Assembly: GCF_004365705.1 (NCBI RefSeq)
Contig: NZ_SOBN01000002.1
Location: forward strand, 1,860,001-1,924,000
DNA length: 64,000 bases
Reading direction: 5' to 3'
From: Streptomyces sp. 846.5
GTDB taxonomy: Bacteria; Actinomycetota; Actinomycetes; Streptomycetales; Streptomycetaceae
This document shows, one piece after another, positions 43,670-57,020 of this stretch; position 1 is the first letter of the stretch; each line of letters begins with the position of its first letter. A model generated the notes under the pieces. It was not told the DNA's origin, did not search any database, and saw only the letters and a program-made list of their open reading frames with translations. The translations under genes were made by a program, and so were the position numbers.

Positions 43670-43936
43670 ATGGCTGAAGACGCAGTGGCCGACAAGACCC
43701 CCGGCGACGCGACAGCGCCGGAGGCTGAGAACGATGCCGCGTCCGAGCAGCAGACTGCGACCGGCTCGAACGACGCGGCAGAGGATGTGAAGCGCAAGTT
43801 CCGCGAGGCGCTGGCCCGCAAGAGCGGCCAGCACGCCGACTCCGCCGCGGCCGGCGGCAGCTCCGAGACGTCCAAGATCCACGGAGCCCACGGCAAGTCC
43901 GGCGGACAGCGTGACTTCCGCCGCAAGAGCGGCTGA
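43670..43936 (+). CDS. Small DUF5302-type protein
   Basis: An 88-residue, highly charged, probably disordered protein. The first 38 residues are Ala/Asp/Glu-rich, followed by [20 protein letters not shown] and a Gly/Lys/Arg-rich end ([20 protein letters not shown]). This matches the DUF5302 family that is nearly universal in streptomycetes. Function unknown. ATG at 43670 has AGGAGG upstream. A strong hairpin follows at 43957-43985. Confidence 0.88.
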
Positions 43937-43956
43937 GGCCACGCGCGTAACGCTGA

Positions 43957-43985
43957 GGGGCGGCGACCATCGCGGTCGCCGCCCC
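43957..43985. terminator. Terminator-like hairpin
   Basis: GGGGCGGCGACC-ATCGC-GGTCGCCGCCCC, a perfect 12-base stem, lies just after the DUF5302-type gene and is followed by TTCG. Confidence 0.75.
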
Positions 43986-44063
43986 TTCGCGAGACCGCTG
44001 CGAGGGCGTCACGGATCGGTACGGATGCCTTGTCAGACGGGCCGCACGAGGCAGGATGTCCCT

Positions 44064-45641
44064 ATGACCTCGATGCGCAAGGGCTCGAACTGCCCCGTAC
44101 CGACGACCGCCCTGCACGCGGTGGTGAGCTGGCGCACCGATGCGCCCGCACCGGACGTCGACGTGTCCGCGCTGCTGCTGGACAGCTCCGGCAAGGTCCG
44201 TTCGGACGCCGACTTCGTCTTCTACAACCAGCCCCAGCACGCCTCCGGCGCGGTCCGGCACGAGGGCAAGCGGCCGCAGCCGGGCGAGATGATGGACGCC
44301 GTGCTGCTGGACCTGGCGGCGGTCGAGCCCGCGGTCGACCGCATCGTGGTGGGCGCCTCGGCCGACGGCGGCACCTTCGGCCAGGTGCCGGGGCTGCGAC
44401 TGCGGGTGATGACCCAGGACGGCGCGAGCGTCGCCGAGTTCGACATCGAGGGTGCGAGCAGCGAGACGGCGTTCCTGTTCGGCGAGTTCTACCGGCGGGC
44501 CGGGGAGTGGAAGTTCCGCGCGGTGGGCCAGGGCTACGCCTCCGGCCTCGAAGGGCTGGCCACCGACTTCGGCATCTCCGTCGAGGGCGACGCGCAGCCG
44601 GCCGCAGCGCCAGCCCCGCAGCCTTACCAGCCGCCGGCGCCACAGCCTTACCAGTCCCCCGCCCCACAGCCCTACCACCCCCCGGCCCCACAGCCGCCGG
44701 TCGGCTTCGGCCCGCCCCCGCCCCAGTACCAGCAACCCCAGTACCAACAGCCCGTGCCCACGGCGTCCGCACCGGGCGGCACTCCGATCAGCCTCAAGAA
44801 GCAGAAACTCATCAACCTGGAGAAGCAGCTCGCCGACCGCGGCGACCGCAACCTGCTCGACCTCACCAAGCGCGCAGCGGTCACCCTGGAGAAGCGCGGC
44901 CTGTCCGAGCACACCGCCCGGGTCGCCCTCTGCCTGGACATCTCCGGCTCGATGGGCGGCCTCTACCGCTCCGGCAAGGTGCAGTCACTGGTCGAACGGG
45001 TGCTGGCGCTGGGGCTGCGCTTCGACGACAACGCCGAGGTCGACGTGTTCCTGTTCGGGGCCCGCGGCCATGAGGCGGGCAGCGTCGGCATGGACAGCTA
45101 CCAGGGCTGGACGGACCGGATGCTCCAGCAGTGGCGGCTGGAGGGCGGCACCGACTACGCCGCCGCCATGGGGCTGATCCGCCAGCAGTACTTCGGCTCG
45201 GCCGACCTGCGCCACAAGCCGATCTCGGACCGCCAGCCGGTCTATGTGATGTTCGTGACGGACGGTCACACCACCAGCGAGGCCGCCACCAAGGCCCATG
45301 TCCTCTCCTCCAGCTACGAGCCGCTGTTCTGGCAGTTCATGGGGATCGGGCGCTCCTCCAAGTCGGTCGACGCACCGCAGGTCGCCCAGGCGGCGCCGCC
45401 TCCCGGCAAGCAGTCGCGCTTCGCCCGCCGGTTCTCGGCGATGGCCGCCAACTGGGGCGACGGCACCTTCCGCTTCCTGGAGGAGCTGGACGACCTGCCC
45501 CACCGCTATGTCGACAACGCCGACTTCTTCTGCGTCCAGGACCCGGCGAACCTCACCGACGAGCAGCTGTACGACCTGATGACGGCCGGGTACGCGGACT
45601 GGCTGCAGCGGGCGAGGGCGAAGGGCCTGCTCATCGGCTGA
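44064..45641 (+). CDS. TerD-VWA fusion protein
   Basis: A 525-residue cytoplasmic protein joining a TerD domain to a von Willebrand A domain. TerD (about residues 1-180) begins MRKGSNCPVPT and includes DADFVFYNQPQHASGAVRH and VGASADGGTFGQV. A Pro/Gln/Tyr-rich repeat linker (about 185-235) follows. The VWA domain (about 285-525) has the MIDAS motif LCLDISGSMGG, then EGGTDYAAAMG and VMFVTDGHTTSEAATKAH. TerD proteins bind calcium and belong to the tellurite/stress 'ter' systems. The ATG at 44064 is followed nine bases later by another ATG. No other ter genes are adjacent. Confidence 0.92.
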   Translation: MTSMRKGSNCPVPTTALHAVVSWRTDAPAPDVDVSALLLDSSGKVRSDADFVFYNQPQHASGAVRHEGKRPQPGEMMDAVLLDLAAVEPAVDRIVVGASADGGTFGQVPGLRLRVMTQDGASVAEFDIEGASSETAFLFGEFYRRAGEWKFRAVGQGYASGLEGLATDFGISVEGDAQPAAAPAPQPYQPPAPQPYQSPAPQPYHPPAPQPPVGFGPPPPQYQQPQYQQPVPTASAPGGTPISLKKQKLINLEKQLADRGDRNLLDLTKRAAVTLEKRGLSEHTARVALCLDISGSMGGLYRSGKVQSLVERVLALGLRFDDNAEVDVFLFGARGHEAGSVGMDSYQGWTDRMLQQWRLEGGTDYAAAMGLIRQQYFGSADLRHKPISDRQPVYVMFVTDGHTTSEAATKAHVLSSSYEPLFWQFMGIGRSSKSVDAPQVAQAAPPPGKQSRFARRFSAMAANWGDGTFRFLEELDDLPHRYVDNADFFCVQDPANLTDEQLYDLMTAGYADWLQRARAKGLLIG

Positions 45642-47101: not shown

Positions 47102-47764
47102 ATGCTGATCAACCCCTGGGACCGCGGCAGCGACGACGAGTGGCGCGCCTGGCTGTCCGCCCGCGACTTCGGCGTCCTCGCCGCCAACGGCCCGGACGGC
47201 GCCGCACCCGTCCTGGTGCCCACGCAATTTGTTTACCAGGGCGGCGACGAGGTCCTGCTGCACCTGGCCCGGCCCAACCCGGTCTGGGCCGCCATCGAGG
47301 CCAACCCCCGACTCACCCTGGCCGTCACCGACGACTACGCCTTCGTCCCCGGCCCGTGGCGCGCCCCCGCCGACACCCCGCCCGAGGACGGCGTCCCCAC
47401 CACCTACTACGCCTCCGTCCACCTGGTCTGCACCGCCGAACCGGTCGACGACCCGGCCGCCAAGGCCGCCCTGCTGGACCGTCAGACCGCCCACTTCCAG
47501 CCGGACGTGCCGCACCGCCCGATCGTCCCCGGCGAGGCGCCGTTCGGACGGATGCTGTCCGCGATCCGGGGGCTGCGGCTGCACATCGAGGAGGTGCGGC
47601 CCAAGTTCAAGTACGACGACAAGAAGACCACCGACTTCCAGGCCGCCGTCGCCGAGGAACTGCTACTGCGCGACCGCCCCAGCGACCCGGGCGCCCGCAC
47701 CCAGCTGCTGCGCCGCCGCGAGGCCCGGCTCACCGCCCCGGAGACCTGCCCGGTCGAACACTGA
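47102..47764 (+). CDS. FMN-binding split-barrel protein (PaiB-like)
   Basis: A 220-residue protein of the FMN-binding negative transcriptional regulator/PaiB group. MLINPWDRGSDDEWRAWLSARDFGVLAANG, PTQFVYQGGDEVLLHLARPNPVWAAIEANPRLTLAVTDDYAFVPGPW and HRPIVPGEAPFGRMLSAIRGLRLHIEEVRPKFKYDDK are characteristic. PaiB members affect protease or polyamine genes in Bacillus; here the neighbour is a MocR-type regulator. The ATG at 47102 is used. Co-regulation from the shared palindrome is likely. Confidence 0.9.
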   Translation: MLINPWDRGSDDEWRAWLSARDFGVLAANGPDGAAPVLVPTQFVYQGGDEVLLHLARPNPVWAAIEANPRLTLAVTDDYAFVPGPWRAPADTPPEDGVPTTYYASVHLVCTAEPVDDPAAKAALLDRQTAHFQPDVPHRPIVPGEAPFGRMLSAIRGLRLHIEEVRPKFKYDDKKTTDFQAAVAEELLLRDRPSDPGARTQLLRRREARLTAPETCPVEH

Positions 47765-47786
47765 TCCACCGGCTCGCCGATCCCGT

Positions 47787-47821
47787 GGGCCGTCCGGGGC
47801 AGGCATCCACCCGGACGGCCC
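47787..47821. terminator. Terminator-like hairpin
   Basis: GGGCCGTCCGGG and CCCGGACGGCCC form a perfect 12-base stem after the FMN-binding protein gene. Confidence 0.7.
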
Positions 47822-47936
47822 AGGAATCGGCCTGGCATCCGCCCCGCTCCAGCCCCCGTTCCTAGGCTGGACGGACGGACCATCAGTTCGGGGACGCGGC
47901 CTCCGCTGCGGCCCGCCGCACTCCCGGGAGCCTCCA

Positions 47937-49355
47937 CTGACCAGTTCAGCGACATCTCAGCAGTCAGCCTCCGGCGAGGGCAGCCTCGGTCACGTCATCT
48001 TCATCGCCGCGGCCGCCGCGATGGGTGGATTCCTCTTCGGTTACGACAGCTCCGTCATCAGCGGCGCCGTGACCGGCATCCAGAAGCACTTCGGCGTGGG
48101 CAGCGGCGAGACCGCGCTGGTGGTCTCCTCCGCGCTGCTGGGTTCGGCCGCGGGCGCCATGGGCGCGGGCTGGCTCGCCGACCGGATCGGCCGTATCCGG
48201 GTGATGCAGATCGCCGCGGTCCTCTTCGCCATCAGCGGCGCCGGCTCGATGTTCCCGCCCAACATCTTCACCCTCGGCGTCTGGCGCGTGGTCGGCGGCG
48301 TCGCCATCGGCATGGCCTCCGTCATCGCCCCCGCCTACATCGCCGAGGTCGCCCCGCCCGCCGTGCGCGGACGGCTCGCCTCCTTCCAGCAGGGCGCGAT
48401 CGTGCTCGGCATCTTCATCTCCCAGCTGGTCAACTACGCCCTCAACCAGGGCGCCGGCGGCAGTCCCAACGACCACATCGCCGGGATCCAGGCCTGGCAG
48501 TGGATGCTCGGCGTGGAGACCATCCCGGCGCTGATCTACTTCCTGATGTCCTACGCCATCCCCGAGTCGCCGCGCTTCCTGATCTCCGTCGGCCGACTGG
48601 ACCGGGCCCGCCAGGTGCTCCTCGACGTCGAGGGCGAGAACAGCGACCCGGACGCCCGGATCGCGGAGATCCAGCAGGTCATGGCCTCCGAGCACAAGTC
48701 CAGCCTGAGCGACCTGCTGGGCGGCCGGGCCGGGCTGCAGACCATCGTCTGGATCGGCATCGGCGCCTCGGTGTTCCAGCAGTTCGTCGGCATCAACGTG
48801 ATCTTCTACTACTCCTCGCTGCTGTGGCAGTCGGTCGGCATCAACGCCAGCAACTCGCTGCTGATCAGCGTGTCCACCTCGCTGGTCAACATCGTCGGCA
48901 CGGTCATCGCCATCGCCCTGGTCGACCGCATCGGCCGCCGCCCGCTCGCCCTGGCCGGCTCCGTCGGCATGGCCGCCGCCCTCGCCCTGGCGGCCTGGGC
49001 CTTCTCCTACCGCCACGGCACCGGCACCACGGCCACCCTCCCCAACACCCAGGCCACCGTCGCCCTGGTTGCGGCCCATGTCTTCGTCCTCTGCTTCGCC
49101 TTCTCCTGGGGCGTCGTGGTCTGGGTCCTGCTCGGCGAGATGTTCCCCAACAAGATCCGCGCTCTCGCCCTCTCCGTCGCCGCAGCGGCCCAGTGGATCG
49201 CCAACTGGGCCATCACCGTCAGCTTCCCGACCATGTCCGACTGGAACCTGTCGGCGACCTACGTCATCTACGCCTGCTTCGCCCTGCTCTCCATCCCCTT
49301 CGTCTACTTCTGCATCAAGGAGACCAAGGGCCGCACCCTGGAGTCCATGGGCTGA
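47937..49355 (+). CDS. Sugar porter family MFS transporter
   Basis: A 472-residue, 12-helix proton:sugar symporter-like protein. Signatures: GGFLFGYDSSVISGAV, GWLADRIGRIRVM, PAYIAEVAPPAVRGRLASFQQ, IPESPRFLISVGR, QQFVGINVIFYYSS, ALVDRIGRRPL and KETKGRTLESMG. These fit xylose, inositol or glucose porters. No ATG, GTG or TTG lies near the expected N-terminus. A CTG at 47937 with GGGAG six bases upstream gives the natural start (LTSSATSQQSASGEG), so a CTG start is proposed; the next ATG would cut into helix 1. Confidence 0.9.
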   Translation: MTSSATSQQSASGEGSLGHVIFIAAAAAMGGFLFGYDSSVISGAVTGIQKHFGVGSGETALVVSSALLGSAAGAMGAGWLADRIGRIRVMQIAAVLFAISGAGSMFPPNIFTLGVWRVVGGVAIGMASVIAPAYIAEVAPPAVRGRLASFQQGAIVLGIFISQLVNYALNQGAGGSPNDHIAGIQAWQWMLGVETIPALIYFLMSYAIPESPRFLISVGRLDRARQVLLDVEGENSDPDARIAEIQQVMASEHKSSLSDLLGGRAGLQTIVWIGIGASVFQQFVGINVIFYYSSLLWQSVGINASNSLLISVSTSLVNIVGTVIAIALVDRIGRRPLALAGSVGMAAALALAAWAFSYRHGTGTTATLPNTQATVALVAAHVFVLCFAFSWGVVVWVLLGEMFPNKIRALALSVAAAAQWIANWAITVSFPTMSDWNLSATYVIYACFALLSIPFVYFCIKETKGRTLESMG

Positions 49356-49359
49356 CAGA

Positions 49360-50046
49360 TCAGGCCTCCCTCGCACCACCGACACTGTCGTCCGGCGGAA
49401 CTCGCGCGGCCAACCAGTCCCTCAACTCCCGGCAGGCTGCCCGCTCCTGCTCCTCGGGACCCCACCACCAGGCGAAGGGCGACGTGCCGACCCGCAGGTC
49501 GTCCCACCACCAGCTCGCGCACTCGGCCAGATGCCGGTCGGCCGTCGACCCCCTCTCCACTTCCCAGCAGGCCAGCCAGGGGCCAACGGATGAAGTCGCG
49601 GTGGCGCAGCTCTCGAAGACCTCGCGGGCCGTGGTCGGCGGCGAATCCTGCCTCAGGGTCCAGACCCACCACGCCTTCAGGAATCCGAGCAGAGCCTGAG
49701 CCTGCCGGTCGGGCCACAGGGTCCAGCGCGCGGCGGCCAGGCCACGGGCGATCAGATCCGGAGATGTCGTGCCCTGCGACAACAGCACAGCGAGTTGTGG
49801 CAGCACCCGCCGGATCACCGCCGGCTGGTCGTCCCAGTGGTCGGGGGCCTCCTCCGCAGCCATCCGAACCAGGTCCAGGGGGAGTTCGACGTCCGCGGTG
49901 CGCAGCAGTGCGACCTCGTCCGCGCCATTGCATCGACCACAACCGAGTTCGTCCGGGTGAGCAGTCATGCCGGCGAAAGCCTCCGCGACACGAGCAATTG
50001 CGACTTGCACGACCTGAGCATCCGACCCGGACACGGCGATTCCCAT
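49360..50046 (-). CDS. Conserved hypothetical protein
   Basis: A 228-residue cytoplasmic protein. It begins MGIAVSGSDAQVVQVAI, has a Cys pair in LGCGRCNGAD, and a Trp-rich second half (GFLKAWWVWTLRQD; CASWWWDDLRVGTSPFAWWWGPEEQERAACRELRDWLAARVP). No known motif. It faces away from the tRNA array across about 147 bases. Convergent with the transporter gene (4 bases apart). Confidence 0.75.
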   Translation of the reverse strand: MGIAVSGSDAQVVQVAIARVAEAFAGMTAHPDELGCGRCNGADEVALLRTADVELPLDLVRMAAEEAPDHWDDQPAVIRRVLPQLAVLLSQGTTSPDLIARGLAAARWTLWPDRQAQALLGFLKAWWVWTLRQDSPPTTAREVFESCATATSSVGPWLACWEVERGSTADRHLAECASWWWDDLRVGTSPFAWWWGPEEQERAACRELRDWLAARVPPDDSVGGAREA

Positions 50047-50193
50047 CGACTACTCCCGCAAGCCGACGCTCACCGAAGAGATCGACGCTACCAGGACGCG
50101 GAGATCGCGCAATCCTGGCGAGAACTGCCGCCTTCCGGACTGAGCGGCCGCAAAACCGTTAGACCTCAGATCGCTCGCTTCCTACGATGAGTG

Positions 50194-50269
50194 AGCGGGT
50201 TGGCGCAGTCGGCAGCGCGGGGGCCTCATAAGCCCTAGGTCACGGGTTCGAATCCCGTACCCGCCACCA
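50194..50269 (+). tRNA. tRNA with CAT anticodon (Met or Ile2 type), atypical
   Basis: Folds as a normal cloverleaf with encoded CCA. The acceptor is AGCGGGT/ACCCGCC, the D-arm is GCGC-AGTCGGCA-GCGC with A14 and G18G19, the anticodon loop is CTCATAA, and the T-arm is ACGGG-TTCGAAT-CCCGT. The 1:72 pair is A:C, a mismatch. The initiator hallmark of three G:C pairs in the anticodon stem is absent, so it looks like an elongator Met or an Ile2 (CAT) tRNA. First of four tightly packed tRNA genes. Confidence 0.8.
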
Positions 50270-50270
50270 A

Positions 50271-50348
50271 GCGTTGAGTGCTGGGACACGAGTGGGGTTG
50301 TAACCCCTGCGCCTTCGGGCTTGCGAGGTTCGATTCCTCGGCAGCGCA
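50271..50348 (+). tRNA. tRNA-like gene with GTA (Tyr) anticodon and reduced D-arm
   Basis: Starts one base after the previous tRNA. The T-arm CGAGG-TTCGATT-CCTCG is perfect. The loop TTGTAAC (anticodon GTA) sits on a stem of three G:C and two wobble pairs. A long variable arm GCC-TTCG-GGC fits tRNA-Tyr. The acceptor pairs at six of seven positions (GCGTTGA/GCAGCGC, one wobble, one A:G mismatch). Only about 15 bases remain for the D region (possible 3-base stem GTG/CAC), with no normal D-loop. No CCA is encoded. It may be functional but unusual, or decaying. Confidence 0.5.
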
Positions 50349-50363
50349 CGGTAATTGCATCGA

Positions 50364-50436
50364 GGCGTCGTACCCCAACGGCAGAGGGAGCCGGTTCAGG
50401 ACCGGTCCAGTGTGCGTTCGAATCGCACCGACGCTA
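50364..50436 (+). tRNA. tRNA with CAG (Leu) anticodon but short variable loop
   Basis: Complete cloverleaf: acceptor GGCGTCG/CGACGCT with a G1:T72 wobble, D-arm CCC...GGG with G18G19, anticodon loop TTCAGGA on a five-base stem, five-base variable loop and T-arm GTGCG-TTCGAAT-CGCAC. Bacterial tRNA-Leu normally has a long variable arm, so this body is not standard for its anticodon. No CCA is encoded. Confidence 0.75.
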
Positions 50437-50446
50437 CGCATGACAT

Positions 50447-50520
50447 GGCGCTGTGCCCCAACTGGCAGAGGGGGCGGTCTGAGGGACCGTCGGTTGCAGG
50501 TTCGATTCCTGTCAGCGCTA
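50447..50520 (+). tRNA. tRNA with GAG (Leu) anticodon but short variable loop
   Basis: Ten bases after the previous tRNA and clearly its paralogue (shared CCCCAACnGGCAGAGGG D-arm). Acceptor GGCGCTG/CAGCGCT with G1:T72 wobble, anticodon loop CTGAGGG on a five-base stem, five-base variable loop, T-arm GCAGG-TTCGATT-CCTGT. As with its neighbour, the Leu anticodon sits on a type I body. No CCA is encoded. Confidence 0.75.
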
Positions 50521-50584
50521 CCGAGGGCTGCCGTGACCGATTCGTTCAAGACGGCGTCGTCAACGGCCCGATAACGTCGCCGTC

Positions 50585-50992
50585 ATGGACACCACGGCTT
50601 CGGATTCACTGCACATCAGCACGCACATTGATCGGCTCGCCCAAGAGGTCTACGACTACGCCTCGGACCCGTCCAACCTGCCCGAGTGGGCTCCCGGGTT
50701 GGGCAGTTCCGTCGAATTGGTCGACGGGCAATGGATCGTGGAATCCCCCATGGGACGGGTCGTCGTCGCCTTTGCCGCCAGAAACGAGTTCGGTGTACTC
50801 GATCACGACGTCACGCTGCCCTCGGGCGAGACCTTCTACAACCCGATGCGGGTGACCGTGGACGGCACCGGGTGCGAGGTGGTGTTCACGCTTCGCCGGC
50901 AGCCGGGGACCAGCGACGAGGACTTCAAGCGTGATGCGGATGCGGTGTTCGCCGACCTCATCGCGCTCAAGCAGGTGATGGAGCACGCGTAG
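50585..50992 (+). CDS. SRPBCC family protein
   Basis: A 135-residue helix-grip protein: LHISTHIDRLAQEVYDYASDPSNLPEWAPGLGSSVELVDGQWIVESPMGRVVVAFAARNEFGVLDHDVTLPSGETFYNPMRVTVDGTGCEVVFTLRRQPGTSDEDFKRDADAV. This is the polyketide cyclase/dehydrase-like group; its ligand is unknown. ATG at 50585 starts 65 bases after the tRNA array, so the two might share a transcript. Confidence 0.87.
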   Translation: MDTTASDSLHISTHIDRLAQEVYDYASDPSNLPEWAPGLGSSVELVDGQWIVESPMGRVVVAFAARNEFGVLDHDVTLPSGETFYNPMRVTVDGTGCEVVFTLRRQPGTSDEDFKRDADAVFADLIALKQVMEHA

Positions 50993-51026
50993 CCCGGGCC
51001 GGACCGGACCGGGACGGCCGCCGCCG

Positions 51027-51278
51027 TCAGCGGGAGCGAGGCGCCTCTCGGGCGCGGGCGTCCTCGCGGAGCAGGCCCAGCAGGTACTCGCAGGCCGGTG
51101 ACTCGTCCCGGAAGCGGCGCAGCCAGGAGCAGCTGCCGCGGCCCCAGTGGTAGGCGATCCAGTCGGCGCCGTCGCGGTCCAGGCAGTAGGCGTTGTCGGG
51201 GAGGCCGCCGTCCAGGCAGTAGGCGTTGCGCCGGATGCCTTCGGCCTCCAACAGCGCTCGAAGCTCTTCGCGGTCCAC
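51027..51278 (-). CDS. Small acidic protein with repeated NAYCLD motif
   Basis: An 83-residue protein. RRNAYCLDGGLPDNAYCLDRDG contains a direct repeat of NAYCLD. The continuation DWIAYHWGRGSCSWLRRFRDESPACEYLLGLLRED resembles small bacterial immunity-like proteins of the form 'Y-x-LDGG ... YxxxRG ... F ... EACxYLL'. That resemblance is from memory and is weak. The GTG at 51278 has GGGAGG five bases upstream; the earlier GTG at 51308 has a poorly spaced site. No toxin gene is recognisable nearby. Confidence 0.7.
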   Translation of the reverse strand: MDREELRALLEAEGIRRNAYCLDGGLPDNAYCLDRDGADWIAYHWGRGSCSWLRRFRDESPACEYLLGLLREDARAREAPRSR

Positions 51279-51368
51279 TGCGGCCTCCCGCTCCTGGGTG
51301 AAGGTCACTCTCCGGACGCCGGGGAACAGCGCGTGGCGGCGCTACCGCCGGACGGGCGACGGCACGGG

Positions 51369-51620
51369 TCAGCTGCGCGCCGGACCCGAGTTCTCCTCCA
51401 CGGTCGCCGCGCTGTCGCCGAGGAACCGCACCTGGTCCAGCCGGACCCCGTACTCGTCGGCGACAGCGATGACATCGCGCCTGGTCCGGACCACGACCTC
51501 GGCGCTCAGCGGGTGCTTCCGGGGGTCGTAGACCTGCATCACGACATGCCTCGGATCGGCCTCACCTTCGACCTCATCCTTGATCCACACCTTCGCGGTA
51601 CGACCGCTCACGTCGTCCAT
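51369..51620 (-). CDS. Small hypothetical protein
   Basis: An 83-residue protein (VWIKDEVEGEADPRHVVMQVYDPRKHPLSAEVVVRTRRDVIAVADEYGVRLDQVRFLGDSAA) with a beta-alpha pattern and no Cys. The ATG at 51620 has a poor ribosome site. No family recognised. Confidence 0.55.
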   Translation of the reverse strand: MDDVSGRTAKVWIKDEVEGEADPRHVVMQVYDPRKHPLSAEVVVRTRRDVIAVADEYGVRLDQVRFLGDSAATVEENSGPARS

Positions 51621-51657
51621 GATCCGATCATCCGATGGCGCGCAGCTCCCCGCTACC

Positions 51658-52406
51658 TCACTTCAGGTGCCGGGCGAAGAAGCGGTCCCCGTCCTCCACC
51701 TCGAACCACGGGGTACCGACGTGCCCGCCCAGATTGGCGTGCAGCGTCTTCTCCTTGCTGCCGAAGGTGTCGAACAGGTCCAGGGCCCGCTCCCGGGGGT
51801 TCCCTTCGTCGTCCCACTGCAGCAGGAACAGCAGCGGAACGGCGACCTGCCGGGCCTCCTCGCGCTGGATGCGGGGCACGTAACCACCGGCGAAGAACCC
51901 GGCGGCCGCGATGCGGGGCTCGACCACCGCCAGCCGGATGCCGACGGCGGCCCACCCCGAGTACCCGACCGGGCCGCCGATCTCGGGCAGTGAAGGAGGG
52001 CGTCCAGGGTGGTCCGCCATTCCGGGACCGCGTTGTCGACCAGCGGGCCGATGAAGGACTCGAAGATCTCATCGACCGGCTCGCCGGCCTGCATCGCCCG
52101 GCGGAGGTCGGCGCGGGCCTGGTCGTCGGCGGCGGAACGGGGCCGGTCACCGCATCCGGGGGCGTCGATGGTCGCCACCGCGTAGCCGTATGCCGCGGAC
52201 TGCCGGGCCCGGGCCACCAGCCGGGCTTCCCGCCTGGGCAGGCCGTTGTTGTGGGCCATCAGGATCAGCGGGACCGGTGCGGCCCCGGAAGATCCAGCGG
52301 CAGATCCAGCAGAGCCCGGCGTCCACAGGGTGCCGGGGATCTCGCCGAGGGTGAATTCGCGTTCGAGGACGCCGTCGTCGAGACGCCGCTCAGAAGTGAA
52401 GCGCAT
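51658..52406 (-). pseudogene. Alpha/beta hydrolase gene broken by a one-base frameshift
   Basis: The first frame (from the ATG at 52406) gives MRFTSERRLDDGVLEREFTLGEIPGTLWTP, LILMAHNNG, YAVATIDAPGCGDRPRS and stays homologous to about WRTTLDALL. A second frame then continues LPEIGGPVGYSGWAAVGIRLAVVEPRIAAAGFFAGG with the nucleophile elbow GYSGW, and ends RFFARHLK. The shift is near 51990 and is fixed by adding one base. Rejoined, the protein is about 249 residues and complete, including PLLFLLQWDDE and the final GGHVG His. It is either recently broken or a sequencing error. Confidence 0.82.
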
Positions 52407-52611
52407 GGTCGTGCCTTTCGGGAGTGCTCGTAAACGGCGCTCCCGGACGACCTATCGCCCGACCGTGACCCCGGAGGGGAGCACCCATGTCGATACTGCG
52501 TTCACGGGTACCACCTCCTCGTTCTCTCGCACGGCCTCCGGCAACCTAGCAGTGGTCGTCGTGGTCCGCCAACCGGTTTTGCGGAGGCCGCCGCTCCAGC
52601 CCCCGCAGCAG

Positions 52612-52962
52612 GATGGCGAAGCCCTGCCCGAGATCTGGGAACGGCCCCCCACCGCCGAGCAGCTCGCCAACATGTGGCCCGGCATCACCGAGGACGCCTG
52701 CCTGTACCTTCCGGATCTCGTCGACCTGGCGGTCACCGCCGGCTTCCGCCCGCTGCGGGTCGAGACCGCCACCCGCAACGAGTGGGAGGAGTTCGAGTCC
52801 GGATTCATGGCGGGCTCCGAGGAGTGGCTGCTCGCCAACGGCGACCACCCCGAAGTCGACAAGGTGCGTTCGCAGTTGGACGAGCACCGGGCCAACTGGC
52901 TGCGCGGCCACCGGGGTGTCCTCGGTTTCGCCTTTCTGACCCTGGGCGTGCCGAACGCGTGA
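52612..52962 (+). pseudogene. C-terminal fragment of a class I SAM methyltransferase
   Basis: From about 52612 the frame encodes ALPEIWERPPTAEQLANMWPGITEDACLYLPDLVDLAVTAGFRPLRVETAT, EEFESGFMAGSEEWLLANGDHPEVDKVRSQLDEHRANWLRG and GFAFLTLG. I recognise this as the C-terminal half of a family of actinobacterial SAM methyltransferases. The N-terminal SAM-binding half is missing and no start codon fits, so this is a remnant. The 200 bases upstream (52407-52611) are unrelated and hold no gene; the junction may mark an old rearrangement. Confidence 0.72.
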
Positions 52963-52982
52963 CCGCGACGGCAGGAAGACGG

Positions 52983-53606
52983 CTATGCGCCCGCCGCCTC
53001 CTCCCGTTCCAGCGCGCGGACCAGGGCCTCGAACCCCGCGTCGGCTCCTGCCATGTCCCCGTTGCCGGTCGCGCGGTCCATCACGAAACCGCGCAGGGTC
53101 GCCAGGATCATCTCCGCGACCCCCAGCTTCCGCCGGTCGGACCAGCCCTCCGGGCAGATGGACAGCAGCGAGGGCAGATACTGCGTGGTCGCGCCCCGCC
53201 CCAGTTCCGCGTAGCGCTCCGGGTCGTACATCGCCAGGCCGATGGCCTGGTCGAGGACCCGCCGCAGCCCGTTGTCCTCCCCCATGAGGACCGGCCAGAT
53301 GGCACGCACCCGGCCGGCCAGCGTCTGCCGGTCCGAACTCCCGGTGCCGGCCAGCGCGTTGTCGATCAGTCGTCCGCGCAGTCGGAAGACCGCCTGCTTG
53401 AGCAGGTCCTCCACCCCGTCGAAGTAGTAGAGCAGCACCTTGTGGGTGGTGCCGGCCGACCGTGCGGCGCGGCGCAGCGAGAAGTCCACCAGACCGTTCA
53501 CCGCGAGGTCGTCGGTGACCCGTTCGAGCAGGTCCCGGCGCCGTGCCTCGCCGCGCCGCGAACCCGTCGAGCGCCGATAACCGACCGTCACATCGGCAGA
53601 GTCCAT
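52983..53606 (-). CDS. TetR/AcrR family regulator
   Basis: A 207-residue regulator with an N-terminal TetR HTH (RRRDLLERVTDDLAVNGLVDFSLRRAARSAGTTHKVLLYYFDGVEDLLKQAVFRLRGRL) and an all-helical ligand domain with a C-terminal LRGFVMDRATGNGD segment. The ATG at 53606 (MDSADVTVGYRR) has GAGGACG upstream. It diverges from the unknown gene at 53713; an operator in the 106-base gap is likely, but none stands out. Confidence 0.9.
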   Translation of the reverse strand: MDSADVTVGYRRSTGSRRGEARRRDLLERVTDDLAVNGLVDFSLRRAARSAGTTHKVLLYYFDGVEDLLKQAVFRLRGRLIDNALAGTGSSDRQTLAGRVRAIWPVLMGEDNGLRRVLDQAIGLAMYDPERYAELGRGATTQYLPSLLSICPEGWSDRRKLGVAEMILATLRGFVMDRATGNGDMAGADAGFEALVRALEREEAAGA

Positions 53607-53712
53607 GGTCGGACGTCCTCTCGAAGTTGATGCGCGACCGATGATGCCAGGCCGCCCGGAAGCCCGATAAATCCCAACTGCCCCACACGATCTCCGTGCT
53701 AGCGTTCGACCC

Positions 53713-54444
53713 GTGACCAAGCTCAATCAGATCATCGCGGTGGAGAAGGGCGTCAAGTCCAAGTCCTTCGCCGACCTCACCCAGGCGCACCACGACGTCC
53801 AGAAGACCGCGCTGCTGGCCGGCATCTCCCGGACCTACCAGCCCAAGGACGAGGAGGGCGACCAGTTCCCGCCCGAGTCGACCCGGGTCCAGGTCAAGGC
53901 CGAGGACGTGCTCAGGTCCACCGCCGCCACGCTGACCCGTCTCTTCGACGTCACCGCGACGAAGGACTGGGCCAACTGCACGGCCAAGGCCGACGTCGTG
54001 GTCGACGGCAACGTGATCGTCGAGGGCGCGCCGGTCAGCTATCTGCTGTTCCTGGAGAAGCAGTTGGTGGATCTGCACACCTTCGTGAAGAAGCTGCCGG
54101 TGCTGGACGCCTCGGAGGCCTGGTCGCGGGACGAGTCGACGGACTCCTGGCGCACCGAGCCGACCCGGACCATCCGCACCCGCAAGGTGATGCGGAACCA
54201 CGTGAAGGCCGAAGCCACCGAGAAGCACCCTGCGCAGGTCGAGGTCTACACCGAGGACGTCGCCGTCGGCTACTGGACCACCGTCAAGTTCTCCGGAGCC
54301 CTGCCGGCCAAGCGGGTCAACGACCTGCTGGAGCGGGTGGAGAAGCTGCAGCAGGCGGTGAAGTACGCCCGCGAGGAGGCCAACGGCGCGGAGGTCACCG
54401 ACCAGCGCGTCGGTGGCAGGGTGTTCGGCTACCTCTTCGGGTAG
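53713..54444 (+). CDS. Conserved protein of unknown function next to the tRNA-like array
   Basis: A 243-residue cytoplasmic protein from a GTG start. TKLNQIIAVEKGVKSKSFADLTQAHHDVQK, SRTYQPKDEEGDQFPPESTRVQVKAEDVL and VDGNVIVEGAPVSYLLFLEKQLVDLHTFVKKLPVLD are strongly patterned and look conserved. YTEDVAVGYWTTVKFSGALPAKRVNDLLERVEKLQQAVKYAREEANG closes with a coiled helix. I recall similar sequences in diverse bacteria and phages annotated only as hypothetical (a DUF). The gene ends 23 bases before a tRNA-like array, which is worth noting. Confidence 0.85.
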   Translation: MTKLNQIIAVEKGVKSKSFADLTQAHHDVQKTALLAGISRTYQPKDEEGDQFPPESTRVQVKAEDVLRSTAATLTRLFDVTATKDWANCTAKADVVVDGNVIVEGAPVSYLLFLEKQLVDLHTFVKKLPVLDASEAWSRDESTDSWRTEPTRTIRTRKVMRNHVKAEATEKHPAQVEVYTEDVAVGYWTTVKFSGALPAKRVNDLLERVEKLQQAVKYAREEANGAEVTDQRVGGRVFGYLFG

Positions 54445-54455
54445 CCCCACAGTCC

Positions 54456-54473
54456 CCCCGTCTTCGGGCGGGG
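54456..54473 (+). terminator. Hairpin after the unknown gene, overlapping a tRNA-like 5' end
   Basis: CCCCGTC-TTCG-GGCGGGG forms a 7-base stem with a stable TTCG loop and one wobble pair. Its 3' arm is also the 5' acceptor strand of the next tRNA-like element, so the two structures are mutually exclusive. Confidence 0.5.
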
Positions 54474-54555
54474 TGCGCGAGGAGCGCAAGCTGAACCTGA
54501 AGCTTGTCGTGACCGACGCGGTCCAGTGGAGGTTCGACTCCTCCCCCCGGCACCA
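54467..54555 (+). tRNA. tRNA-like element 1 of the second array, with encoded CCA
   Basis: The T-arm GGAGG-TTCGACT-CCTCC is perfect and the acceptor GGCGGGG/CCCCGGC pairs at six of seven positions, followed by A-CCA. The D-arm is GCGC-GAGGA-GCGC with a short loop. The anticodon-position arm AAGCT-AGCTT encloses eight bases (GAACCTGA) without T33, and a long variable arm GACC-GACGC-GGTC follows. It is tRNA-like in shape but not a standard decoding tRNA. Confidence 0.45.
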
Positions 54556-54559
54556 GCGG

Positions 54560-54702
54560 GCCGGGGTAGCCCAAGCAGGCAGAGGCAGCCGTGATCAATC
54601 TCAGACTCTCGCTCCAGATTCAGCATTCGCCGCCGAGCGCCAGATCGAACGAGTGCGGACGACCATCGTCGGATGCCGGTTCAAGTCCGGCCCCCTGCTC
54701 CA
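54560..54702 (+). tRNA. tRNA-like element 2 of the second array, with about 65 extra bases
   Basis: Starts four bases after element 1. The acceptor GCCGGGG/CCCCTGC pairs at six of seven positions. The D-arm GCC...GGC with GG in the loop is normal, the T-arm is GCCGG-TTCAAGT-CCGGC, and the 3' end is T-CCA. Between D-arm and T-arm lie about 88 bases instead of the usual 21-40, including a hairpin GACGA-CCA-TCGTC in variable-arm position. No clean anticodon arm was found. The extra bases could be an insertion, an intron or decay. Confidence 0.45.
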
Positions 54703-54706
54703 GCCT

Positions 54707-54750
54707 GCAGAGGTAGTTCAAAGGCAGAACACGGCGATTTGAAAATGATC
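54707..54750 (+). other. tRNA-like fragment: D-arm and possible anticodon arm only
   Basis: Four bases after element 2, GCAGAGG-TA-GTTC-AAAGGCA-GAAC is a textbook acceptor-5'/D-arm start. The following CGGCGATTTGAAAATGATCC could be a poor anticodon arm (GAA or TGA). No matching T-arm or acceptor 3' strand is found downstream, so it is truncated. Confidence 0.35.
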
Positions 54751-54800
54751 CGCAACTCTTAAACGTGCTGGCGCCAACAATTGGGTGGCATCACCAGAGG

Positions 54801-54826
54801 CCCGGGAGATGGATACCGCTCCCGGG
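54801..54826. terminator. Hairpin closing the tRNA-like array
   Basis: CCCGGGAG and CTCCCGGG, a perfect 8-base stem with a 10-base loop, lies downstream of the second array and about 75 bases before the convergent Clp-N gene stop. Confidence 0.6.
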
Positions 54827-54898
54827 TCTCGCCACGCTCCGCCCCATCCACCCCATCCCCCTTCGTCCCGCCCCATTCACCCCGTCCCCCGGAAGCGT

Positions 54899-55552
54899 TC
54901 AGCGCTGCCGTGCCCGGTCGGCCACCGCGGACGGGTCCGCGCCCGCGCCCTTGAGCATCTTCGCGGCCCGGCTGTCCGGGTCGGAGGCGAGCTCCGCGAG
55001 CAGGTCCAGCGGATCCGCCTCCGCGGCGTCCCGCAACAGCGCGGCGACCAGGGCCCGGTCGACGGCGGCCTCCGCGGCATCACTCAGTCCTGGCGGCAGC
55101 GCGAATCGCTGCCTGGGTATACCGACGCCGTCGTCCGCGCTCTCCCCCTCCCCCTGCAGCCAGTCGCGCCCGAAGCCGATGCTGCGCTGGGCCAGATACC
55201 CCATCAGCCGCGTTGCCTGGGTGGGCAGCGGAGCGGCCAGGCCGAGCACCTGCTCGTCGCATTCGAGCAGGGCGTGCAGCAGATGGCCGCTGTCGATCTC
55301 GACATCACCGGCACGGACGGCCCGGCGGCGGGCGCGGGCCAGGACGGGCGCGAGCGCACCCGCCGGGTCAGGGCGTCGGCGCCCGCGTTCGGCGCCGCGG
55401 AGATCTTCGGCGCCATGGAGGTCAGGGAACACGTGGTCCACCACATCGTCAGCAGGGACGGGGCAGATGAGCAGCGGCCGGCAGCCGGTCGCCACGTCGC
55501 AGTCTGCTGCGCAGCGTGAGCAACAGTCAACCCACAGATACGATCGTCCCAC
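54899..55552 (-). CDS. Clp N-terminal domain-containing protein
   Basis: The conserved part, LARARRRAVRAGDVEIDSGHLLHALLECDEQVLGL to LDLLAELASDPDSRAAKMLKGAGADPSAV, is a double Clp-N repeat of the kind found as stand-alone proteins in streptomycetes, where it may act as an adaptor or stress protein. No AAA+ domain follows. The start is uncertain. The GTG at 55552 has GGGGGAG six bases upstream but adds a Cys-rich stretch (six Cys in about 30 residues) that I cannot match to the family. Shorter GTG starts near 55444 are possible. Confidence 0.7.
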   Translation of the reverse strand: MGRSYLWVDCCSRCAADCDVATGCRPLLICPVPADDVVDHVFPDLHGAEDLRGAERGRRRPDPAGALAPVLARARRRAVRAGDVEIDSGHLLHALLECDEQVLGLAAPLPTQATRLMGYLAQRSIGFGRDWLQGEGESADDGVGIPRQRFALPPGLSDAAEAAVDRALVAALLRDAAEADPLDLLAELASDPDSRAAKMLKGAGADPSAVADRARQR

Positions 55553-55806
55553 CGACCGCTCCCCCTTCCCGGGCCGCCCGCAGGCGTCGCCCGCTCCCCC
55601 AGGACCGTCCCCAACTGCCGTGTTCCACAGGTTCGCTACCCCTTGCGCCGCCATTCGCCATCCGGCGCACGGTTGCACGACCGGGCGTGCGGCAACACCC
55701 CGCGCCCCCGATCGACCGCAACCACGGCCGTCCGCGACACGTCGGACACCACAACGGTCACACCTGTACCGCGCCGCCGCCGTTCCCGGAGCCCTCCATC
55801 GATCCC

Positions 55807-56331
55807 TTGCCAGCGCCGCGCCTCGCCGCCGGATCCGCAGCCGCCGGATCCGCGCGCCACCGGGCGGCCCGTACCGACAAGCCGCTGCTGTACCTGGACG
55901 TGGACGGCGTGCTCAACCCCGTCTGCCCGCGCCCCGAGGGCGACTTCACGATCTACCGGATCCAGGGCAGCACGGTGCTGATATCCGCCCGGCACGGCGC
56001 CTGGCTCCGCGAGCTCTCGGAGGTCTACCAGCTCGTCTGGGCCAGTACCTGGGAGGCCTACGCCAATCTCTGCATCGCGCCGCTGCTGCACCTTCCCGAG
56101 CTGCCGTTCGTCCCGGTGGGACGCCGGCCGGGCGGCGACTGGCTGCCGATCGTGCGGCACGCGGCGGGCCGGCCCTTCGCCTGGGTGGACGACCTCATCC
56201 CGGACGCCGTGCTGCGGGACAGCGAGGCCCGGGCCGACCGGTTGCTGCTTCCGGTCGACCCGGGCCAGGGTCTGCGCCGATCCCATGTGGACCGGCTGTT
56301 GCGCGAGCCCCCGATCCGCCCCCTGGTCTGA
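55807..56331 (+). CDS. HAD-like protein with N-terminal DVDGVLNP motif
   Basis: The core PLLYLDVDGVLNPVCPRPEG carries the HAD nucleophile Asp and the +2 Asp. LVWASTWEAYANLCIAPLL and PFAWVDDLIPDAVL supply the later HAD motifs (acidic pair in WVDDL). Proteins of this type are small HAD-domain 'hypothetical secreted or cytosolic' proteins of streptomycetes with no known substrate. The start is unclear: TTG at 55807 gives 174 residues, while a GTG at 55516 would add a 97-residue Pro/Arg-rich region overlapping the divergent gene. Neither has a good ribosome site. Confidence 0.75.
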   Translation: MPAPRLAAGSAAAGSARHRAARTDKPLLYLDVDGVLNPVCPRPEGDFTIYRIQGSTVLISARHGAWLRELSEVYQLVWASTWEAYANLCIAPLLHLPELPFVPVGRRPGGDWLPIVRHAAGRPFAWVDDLIPDAVLRDSEARADRLLLPVDPGQGLRRSHVDRLLREPPIRPLV

Positions 56332-56348
56332 CGGGGACGGTCACCGGG

Positions 56349-57020
56349 TCACGCCTCCTCGGCGAGGATCAGATAGAGCTTCTTGCGGGCGTCGGCCAGC
56401 ACCGCGAGCGCCTTGGTGCGCTGCTCGGGGCTGCCGGTGAGCACCACCTGCCGCAGTGCGTCCTGCACCGCGCCGCCGGCCTGGCCGAACTCCCTGACGA
56501 TCTGCCAGTGCTCGCCCTGCCCGGCCTCTTCCCACGGGGCCTCGGGGCCGTTGTCGGCCTCGGCCCGGCCGGTCTCGGTGAGCTGGAACAGCTTCTTGCC
56601 GCCGGTCTCCTCGCTGCTGATCAGTCCCTCCTCCTCCAGCATCTGGAGGGTGGGGTAGACCGATCCGGGGCTGGGCTTCCAACTGCCGCCGGAGCGCTCC
56701 GCGATCTCGCGGATCATCTCGTAGCCGTGCATCGGCCGGTCCTTCAGCAGGGCCAGCAGCGATGCGCGGACGTCGCCGCGCCGGGCCCGGCCGCCATGAC
56801 GGCCACCGCGCCCACCGGGGCCTCCGCCCCGGAAGGGACCGAAACCGGGGCCGAACGGTCCCGGACCGAAGCCGGGTCCTCCGGGGGGCGGGCCGAACCC
56901 GCCGAACGCCTGACGGAACTCGGCGCGCGGACCGCGCCCCCGGTGACCGTGTTCTCCGCGCCCGCCCCGGCCGGGTCGGCCTTCGGGCTGCGCGCCTTCG
57001 AATGGAATTCCTGTACGCAT
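56349..57020 (-). CDS. PadR family regulator with Gly/Pro/Phe-rich N-terminal extension
   Basis: A 223-residue regulator. Residues 12-80 are a low-complexity Gly/Pro/Arg/Phe region (for example GGPGFGPGPFGPGFGPF). The PadR winged helix follows: VRASLLALLKDRPMHGYEMIREIAERSGGSWKPSPGSVYPTLQMLEEEGLISSEETGGKKLFQLTETG, then a helical C-terminal dimerisation part. The ATG at 57020 has AAAGGACGAAG upstream. It is 118 bases downstream of the ABC permease gene on the same strand, behind its own A/T-rich promoter with a palindrome. It may repress that exporter. Confidence 0.92.
   Translation of the reverse strand: MRTGIPFEGAQPEGRPGRGGRGEHGHRGRGPRAEFRQAFGGFGPPPGGPGFGPGPFGPGFGPFRGGGPGGRGGRHGGRARRGDVRASLLALLKDRPMHGYEMIREIAERSGGSWKPSPGSVYPTLQMLEEEGLISSEETGGKKLFQLTETGRAEADNGPEAPWEEAGQGEHWQIVREFGQAGGAVQDALRQVVLTGSPEQRTKALAVLADARKKLYLILAEEA

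What the first reader, a model, noticed from the sequence alone, without database searches (positions are those of the whole stretch)
50194..50520. Packed array of four atypical tRNA genes
Four tRNA-shaped genes lie within 330 bases, with gaps of 1, 15 and 10 bases. All depart from standard bacterial tRNAs. The CAT tRNA has an A1:C72 mismatch. The GTA tRNA has almost no D-arm. The CAG and GAG tRNAs combine Leu anticodons with short variable loops and G1:T72 wobble pairs, and the last three lack encoded CCA. The last two are clear paralogues. Retained cloverleaf pairing and T-loops argue against random decay. Possible roles (inference): dedicated amino-acid donors for tRNA-dependent non-ribosomal enzymes, decoys for anticodon nucleases, Y-RNA-like regulators, or a degenerating phage/plasmid tRNA array.
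Basis: partly seen in the sequence, partly recalled or inferred. Interest (0 to 1): 0.88.

Follow-up and report, generated by a model that had tools for sequence, protein, structure and literature searches.

The report
Mobile phage-type tRNA gene array
A soil bacterium of the genus Streptacidiphilus carries, on top of its ordinary tRNA genes, a small packed set of foreign, virus-style tRNA genes that relatives keep at different chromosomal places; they look selected rather than decaying and may keep protein synthesis going when the normal tRNAs are destroyed.

Summary
The four tRNA genes are real and this copy does not look like random decay. The host is a Streptacidiphilus species (inferred). 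Related arrays of 2-10 tRNAs with a common upstream element occur in 11 of 14 genus genomes, the window's included, and 4 genomes of a second genus, mostly in unrelated surroundings. Stems are kept by compensatory change (Leu: 440 of 440 cells paired, 14 of 20 pairs with double changes). The genome has ordinary Met, Tyr, Leu(cag) and Leu(gag) genes, so the array is redundant. Most oddities have plain explanations: an unpaired 1:72 in Met is also found in 12 of 26 phage-type Met tRNAs; short-loop Leu tRNAs occur singly in other actinobacteria; missing CCA is usual here. Tyr-His and Trp-Gln order of a longer relative recurs in actinophages. Best reading: a captured phage-type array of spare tRNAs against tRNA-cleaving enzymes; expression, charging and resistance are untested. 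Possibly newer: 3.2 kb downstream, a DUF7873 gene with a covarying RNA of two permuted tRNA-like modules, also found among phage tRNA genes. The shared promoter type is seen in 18 of 42 DUF7873 loci, not in the window's.

The parts
50150..50188 (+). conserved promoter-like element GCAAAACCGTTAGA-N19-TACGAT; it begins 44 bases before the first tRNA
   Evidence: a matrix from 11 other loci scores it 24.8, against a maximum of 11.7 in 57 upstreams of other tRNA genes of the same genome
50194..50269 (+). tRNA-Met(cat), initiator-type unpaired 1:72, encoded CCA
50271..50349 (+). tRNA-Tyr(gta), 3-bp D hairpin, long anticodon stem, variable arm
50364..50437 (+). tRNA-Leu(cag), short variable loop
50447..50522 (+). 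tRNA-Leu(gag), short variable loop, paralogue of the former
53713..54444 (+). DUF7873 (PF25283) gene; possible functional partner, inferred only
   Evidence: Pfam 1.8e-119; 73 phage records; 343 viral-contig stretches
54445..54830 (+). structured RNA downstream of DUF7873 with two permuted tRNA-like modules (54528-54586 and 54675-54730); outer ends not determined

Best explanation
The four genes are a short, intact member of a mobile family of tRNA arrays of actinophage type, captured by Streptomycetaceae and kept under selection. Proposed working: a dedicated promoter transcribes the array as one RNA; tRNA-processing enzymes cut it and add CCA; the tRNAs are charged and act as redundant spares (one initiator-like Met, one Tyr, two Leu) whose bodies differ from the host's own, so that they escape or outnumber the losses caused by enzymes that cleave host tRNAs (toxins such as VapC, phage-defence tRNA nucleases) and keep translation going. 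Shown: conserved cloverleaves, promoter-like element, redundancy, scattered sites, phage-like order in a longer relative. Inferred: transcription, charging, nuclease resistance, benefit to the host.
For: Related arrays in 11 of 14 genus genomes and 15 of 297 family genomes, both counts including the window's (at most three candidates per genome were scored). Order Met-Tyr-His-Leu-Leu-Ser-Ser-Trp-Gln-Leu in the longest copy. Most pairs of copies share little beyond the array; ten flanking genes scanned look ordinary. Adjacent Tyr-His in Streptomyces phages and Trp-Gln in mycobacteriophages; 241 phage records match the long array. Structure kept by double changes. Leu(cag) has 0 of 74 mismatches to G005 and G003, whose DUF7873 fourfold sites differ from the window's by 15% and 20%. 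Ordinary Met, Tyr, Leu(cag), Leu(gag) genes elsewhere in the genome. The Leu anticodons serve the commonest Leu codons (CTG 0.72, CTC 0.25 in 24 open frames of the window), so they fill no codon gap. 14 PIN-domain (VapC-type) matches in the genome. Published precedent: anticodon-loop changes in mycobacteriophage tRNAs (PMC10264068, passages); phage tRNA-Tyr rescuing infection from tRNA-Tyr cleavage (PMC13096335, passages).
Against: No expression data. No nuclease of this host is shown to cleave the matching host tRNAs. The Met anticodon loop is identical to the two host Met loops seen; Leu and Tyr loops differ at positions 32/38 only (compared by eye). In PMC13096335 the T6 tRNA-Tyr was itself cut, so dosage and not resistance helped there. 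Several sister copies are eroded, so the need is not constant. Nearest phage tRNAs are 77-80% identical, little closer than host ones (72-76%), and Leu(cag) is closest (84%) to single chromosomal Leu tRNAs of other actinobacteria, a set chosen by its likeness to Leu(cag). Horizontal spread could also make Leu(cag) look slow.
Confidence: 0.5

Rival explanations
1. A remnant of a prophage or plasmid tRNA array that is simply decaying.
For: Sister arrays contain clearly eroded genes, for example Leu(gag) in G001 and G002, a Leu(cag) in the second G005 locus, and the second G146 locus. No integrase was recognised in the flanking genes scanned. The array of G068 lies in a contig that IMG/VR holds as viral.
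Against: All four window genes keep their stems; compensatory changes are many; Leu(cag) hardly changes while fourfold sites do; the promoter-like element is kept although 36 of 76 alignment columns before the array differ between G000 and G005.
Confidence: 0.2
2. The array-type tRNAs, above all Tyr, serve as structural RNA partners of the DUF7873/tRNA-like RNA module rather than as decoding tRNAs.
For: In six genomes (G002, G006-G010) a Tyr-type tRNA of the same kind lies directly before the DUF7873 gene, and in three of these (G002, G006, G008) its anticodon arm is replaced or lost while T-arm, acceptor and CCA or CC remain. In the genus loci examined no genome has both an array Tyr and a leader Tyr. 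DUF7873 lies in or beside tRNA genes in four actinophages read.
Against: G146 has an array with Tyr but is not among the DUF7873 matches, and G004 has an array without Tyr and no DUF7873. The Leu and Met genes keep intact anticodon loops. The window's own DUF7873 upstream does not score as the same promoter.
Confidence: 0.17
3. Codon compensation: the array supplies tRNAs for codons that the host reads poorly.
For: This is the classical account of phage tRNAs (named in the abstract of PMC10264068, seen in part and in passages).
Against: The host has its own genes for the same anticodons, and the array reads common codons.
Confidence: 0.08
4. Dedicated aminoacyl donors for a tRNA-dependent biosynthetic enzyme.
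For: Other Streptacidiphilus genomes do carry cyclodipeptide synthases (11 of 14).
Against: The window genome and G005, which has the most similar array, have no match, nor has G012; no neighbour gene is common to the arrays. Lantibiotic-type dehydratases, peptide-tRNA ligases and FemX-type enzymes were not searched.
Confidence: 0.03

Closest known systems
tRNA array units of Mycobacterium chromosomes, plasmids and mycobacteriophages (PMC5966550, passages seen)
   Same: tight clusters, isotypes redundant with the rest of the genome, same kinds in chromosome and phage, no signs of recent integration in the flanks, another structured RNA in most arrays
   Different: those hold many more tRNAs (26-37 on plasmids) and widely an HNH endonuclease gene; here 2-10 tRNAs, no gene inside the window's array, different order; a common promoter-like element is shown here
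Actinophage tRNA arrays (Streptomyces phages Kenrey and Gilson, mycobacteriophage Severus)
   Same: Tyr-His and Trp-Gln order as in the ten-gene relative L085; unpaired 1:72 in one of the two Kenrey Met tRNAs
   Different: host chromosomal, few recognisable phage genes nearby, fewer isotypes
Phage tRNAs that evade tRNA-cleaving defences (PMC10264068 and PMC13096335, passages; PMC11555353, search listing with start of abstract only)
   Same: foreign tRNAs redundant in isotype with the host; Tyr with a different variable arm; loop differences at 32/38 in Leu and Tyr
   Different: here in a bacterium; no nuclease tested
YrlA / Y RNA-like (Rfam RF02553), for the downstream RNA
   Same: T-arm, acceptor and D-arm in permuted order, the second module closed by a long stem
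   Different: 29.8 bits against a cut-off of 69; two modules; neighbour DUF7873; no TROVE (Ro/Rsr) match in the window genome
GOLLD RNA with mycobacterial tRNA clusters (PMC9569102, passages)
   Same: large structured RNA found with tRNA arrays
   Different: no GOLLD match in the window at Rfam cut-offs or in 49300-56500 at E <= 1

Membership tests
Functional tRNA | cloverleaf conserved by compensatory change | tested here: met
Functional tRNA | transcribed, processed, charged | not testable with these tools
   no RNA data
tRNA array unit as used in published surveys | high local density of tRNA genes | tested here: met
   4 in 329 bases
tRNA array unit as used in published surveys | large number of tRNAs (threshold of about 20, recalled, from no call) | tested here: not met
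   4 here, at most 10 in the relatives fetched; hence a small array of the same nature rather than a formal unit
Actinophage-type tRNA array | gene order shared with phage arrays | tested here: met
   Tyr-His and Trp-Gln, tested with the ten-gene relative L085; the window's four genes lack His, Trp and Gln, and the window's own search found only single-tRNA phage matches
Actinophage-type tRNA array | phage genes around it | tested here: not met
   of 9 open frames near the window array only the TerD/vWA protein, 4.6 kb upstream, matches PHROGs families, both of unknown function
Initiator tRNA (Met gene) | unpaired 1:72 | tested here: met
   6 of 6 array Met genes aligned; 12 of 26 Met against 6 of 409 other tRNAs in phage and viral loci, near-duplicates not removed
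Initiator tRNA (Met gene) | three G-C pairs in the anticodon stem (recalled, from no call) | tested here: not met
   two G-C and one C-G in the window
Nuclease-evading phage tRNA | resists a nuclease that cuts the host isoacceptor | not testable with these tools
   needs cleavage assays
Y RNA (YrlA), for the downstream RNA | reaches the curated Rfam score | tested here: not met
   29.8 against 69 bits; phage relatives 37.1 and 32.9
Y RNA (YrlA), for the downstream RNA | partner Ro/Rsr (TROVE) protein in the genome | tested here: not met
   no PF05731 match in G000; 8 of 14 genus genomes have partial matches
Y RNA (YrlA), for the downstream RNA | permuted tRNA-like module with covariation | tested here: met
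   99.6% of 709 cells paired, 20 of 31 pairs with double changes

The most novel reading that the evidence does not exclude
Mobile tRNA arrays and the DUF7873 gene with its tandem permuted tRNA-like RNA are parts of one unrecognised, phage-shared system: an RNA-protein particle that mimics tRNA, working without a Ro protein, coupled to stand-in tRNAs and switched on from a common promoter type when tRNAs are attacked.
Probability: 0.3. Interest if true: 0.88.

Novelty: new variant of a known kind. Interest (0 to 1): 0.62.

Why it matters
It shows phage-type tRNAs kept across a bacterial genus as a small transferable unit with its own promoter-like element, which makes the question of what extra tRNAs are for testable outside phages. 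It also points to a conserved protein-RNA pair (DUF7873 in 167 of 297 Streptomycetaceae genomes, and 343 viral-contig stretches) whose RNA reaches no Rfam cut-off in the loci tested and whose protein name occurs in no paper of the searched library.

Tried and rejected
Free-energy folding of single tRNAs: not informative. Plasmid search: 6 records, the best covering 37% of the query at 69.5%. Array inside a mobile element: no integrase among the flanking proteins scanned, 10 by Pfam and 10 by PHROGs; one ATPase-like protein of L085 matches an unknown-function family best and, weakly, a terminase (E 0.0026) and a transposition family (E 0.0086). Fold search with the DUF7873 model (pLDDT 89.8, pTM 0.63): no PDB match at E <= 0.001; one viral match at 3.1e-4 with low TM-score. 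The first promoter test on reverse-strand DUF7873 loci L099, L101 and L106 was mis-oriented and was redone. tRNA-dependent lysogeny (PMC10865867, abstract and outline) was considered as a role and set aside because no integrase was seen near the array. A matched control for tRNA density around phage genes failed: the terminase query brought one locus. Of 80 viral DUF7873 loci 45 have a tRNA or tmRNA call; leaving out calls just 3' of DUF7873, which can be the tRNA-like RNA itself, 41 have at least one, 31 at least three and 14 at least ten; near-duplicate contigs were not removed and there is no control. Literature: no paper for DUF7873; a search for tRNA arrays or clusters with Streptacidiphilus, Kitasatospora or Streptomycetaceae gave 196 papers, of which the 12 listed hold neither tRNA term; searches on Y-RNA-like and permuted tRNA-like RNAs of phages brought nothing on this RNA in their listings.

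Rows dropped before counts: in the Leu alignment 11 of 15 intact Leu(cag) were used (G002, G003, G004, G007 left out) and 12 of 13 called Leu(gag) (second G146 locus left out), plus two from viral contig L166; eroded copies (G001 gag, G002 gag, second G005 cag, second G146 cag) were not aligned. In the Met alignment a separate Met gene of L030 was left out. In the Tyr alignment the eroded G001 copies, the second G146 copy and the G002/G006/G008 leaders were left out. In one search, tRNAs without a recognisable T-loop or with fewer than five of the other six acceptor pairs were dropped. In the RNA alignment 20 of 42 cellular loci and 3 viral loci were used; my pattern found both modules in only 3 of 14 viral loci tried, and two of each element in 32 of 42 cellular loci.

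Full report
What is there. The window is part of a 9.03-Mb genome in 5 contigs. A Leu(cag) pattern scanned over the 84,980 species genomes of the named collection hits ten loci: eight Streptacidiphilus species, Kitasatospora humi and Streptomyces sp. NRRL S-350. The eight contig lengths equal those of genus genomes G002-G009, so the window belongs to Streptacidiphilus (inference). The four tRNA genes stand as described; three pass Rfam's tRNA cut-off.

Not chance, not lone. A search of the 14 genus genomes gives matches in 11, the window's included. Copies range from one or two called genes to ten: Met-Tyr-Leu-Leu-Ser-Ser-Gln in G005, Arg-Leu-Leu-Ser-Trp in G007, ten genes in G068. In the family 15 of 297 genomes match Leu(cag): 11 of the genus and 4 of one other genus. 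In a class-wide sample 46 of 394 match, 45 without the window's, at lower identity; of 24 such loci scanned (of 29 fetched), 23 hold one called tRNA, a Leu of 74-77 bases, and one an array of 18 called tRNA genes. Thus a Leu anticodon with a short variable loop is not unusual in other actinobacteria, while the four kinds of Leu gene that I examined in the window genome are 83-84 bases long.

Mobility. Pairwise comparison of 20-kb stretches shows that most pairs of copies share nothing above 90 bits beyond the array and the stretch just before it. Exceptions: G000, G005 and G006 share flanking sequence in part; G002 and G007 share a downstream flank of several kb; the second array of G001 (L030) and that of G146 (L088) share about 3 kb downstream at 72%; a few other pairs share single stretches at 64-71%; and the site of the G004 array is that of loci in G007, G009 and G010 that hold a lone Tyr tRNA beside DUF7873. 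Ten flanking genes scanned with Pfam are ordinary or unmatched. The G068 array lies in a contig that IMG/VR also holds as viral; of nine ORFs scanned there, four match PHROGs families, none clearly structural.

Selection. On the Leu alignment all 440 cells pair; 14 of 20 pairs show double changes; the covariation score is 0.655 against 0.244 in shuffles. For Met 95.2% of cells pair, 11 of 21 pairs show double changes, and position 1:72 is unpaired in 6 of 6. For Tyr 98.8% pair and 12 of 22 pairs show double changes, including one in the small D hairpin. Leu(cag) shows no mismatch between G000 and G005 or G003, while 15% and 20% of DUF7873 fourfold sites differ; against seven other genomes it shows 1-6 mismatches in 74 while 30-41% of those sites differ; an open frame beside the array (47229-49355) differs from G005 at 11.4% of fourfold sites. 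Met is less constant: 7 of 77 columns differ from G005. Horizontal spread could also make Leu(cag) look slow, so this is support and not proof.

Promoter. A matrix from 11 loci (ten array promoters and one DUF7873-leader promoter) scores the held-out window array 24.8 and the held-out G005 array 30.4; the best of 57 upstreams of other tRNA genes in the window genome scores 11.7. With ten array promoters alone, 18 of 42 DUF7873 upstreams exceed the maximum of 294 background stretches and 22 exceed its 99th percentile; the other 20 do not, among them the window's own (L097) and its near relatives L098 and L099.

Oddities explained. The Met 1:72 mismatch is a mark of initiator-type tRNAs (recalled), and in phage and viral-contig loci it is found in 12 of 26 Met tRNAs but in 6 of 409 others that passed the stem filter. 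The anticodon stem lacks the third initiator G-C pair. Encoded CCA is missing in most other tRNA genes examined: 13 of 58 end in CCA.

Origin. The ten-gene array matches 241 phage records; adjacent Tyr-His recurs in Streptomyces phages and Trp-Gln in mycobacteriophages (Kenrey read). The window's own four genes bring single-tRNA matches in 15 phage records. Best identities for the window's four genes are 77-80% to 492 phage-type tRNAs and 72-76% to 58 host tRNAs; Leu(cag) is closest, 84%, to single chromosomal Leu tRNAs of other actinobacteria. The array did not arise by recent copying of the host genes examined; the exact donor is open.

Function. The host has its own Met, Tyr, Leu(cag) and Leu(gag) genes, and CTG and CTC make up 97% of Leu codons in 24 open frames of the window. 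A spare-tRNA role against cleavage fits redundancy and published phage cases: mycobacteriophage tRNAs with anticodon-loop changes, and phage tRNA-Tyr supply rescuing infection from Septu, although there the phage tRNA was cut as well. The genome has 14 PIN-domain matches. Whether any of them cuts the matching host tRNAs is unknown.

Beyond the coordinates. 3.2 kb downstream lies a DUF7873 gene. Relatives occur in 73 phage records and 343 viral-contig stretches. In phages Mimi, NiceHouse, Phendrix and Keelan it sits in or beside tRNA genes, in a Klebsiella phage about 3 kb from them, and in cyanophage Pam2 no tRNA is annotated nearby. Of 80 viral loci kept, 41 have a tRNA or tmRNA call in the flanks (up to 6 kb a side) after leaving out the RNA beside DUF7873 (no matched control). 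All 42 cellular loci examined have at least one T-loop-like and one D-arm-like element downstream, 32 of them two of each. RNAalifold predicts 66 pairs, 39 with double changes, including T-arm, acceptor and D-arm in permuted order, twice; counted as named, 99.6% of 709 cells pair. Rfam knows it only as a sub-threshold YrlA match, and the window genome has no TROVE match. In six genus genomes an array-type Tyr tRNA lies directly before DUF7873, and in three of them its anticodon arm is replaced or lost. DUF7873 is common in the family (167 of 297), so its presence in 13 of 15 array genomes is weak evidence of a link; G004 and G146 have arrays without it.

Verdict. It is a small chromosomal array of phage-type tRNAs, a new variant of a known kind. 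The association with DUF7873 and its tRNA-like RNA is the part most worth following.

Noticed in passing
window 53713-54830: DUF7873 gene followed by a structured RNA with two permuted tRNA-like modules; also among phage tRNA genes; below Rfam cut-offs in the loci tested.
   Followed up: partly
L101, L102, L104 upstream of DUF7873: Tyr-type tRNA leader whose anticodon arm is lost (replaced by a long hairpin in G002 and G008) while acceptor and T-arm stay.
   Followed up: partly
   Followed up: no
L077 539-2339: Array of 18 called tRNA genes in a genome of another family of the class, including short-loop Leu(cag) and Leu(gag).
   Followed up: no
L092 4072-4600: tmRNA match (89 bits) in the tRNA array of Gordonia phage Phendrix, where the record annotates only tRNA genes on either side.
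   Followed up: no
window 43911-45641: TerD domain joined to a vWA domain of TerF type; PHROGs also has matching families.
   Followed up: no
window 49360-50046, minus strand: 228-aa open frame just before the array with no Pfam, NCBIfam or PHROGs match; its DNA is not matched in the 20-kb stretch of G005, whose array is otherwise 91% identical.
   Followed up: partly
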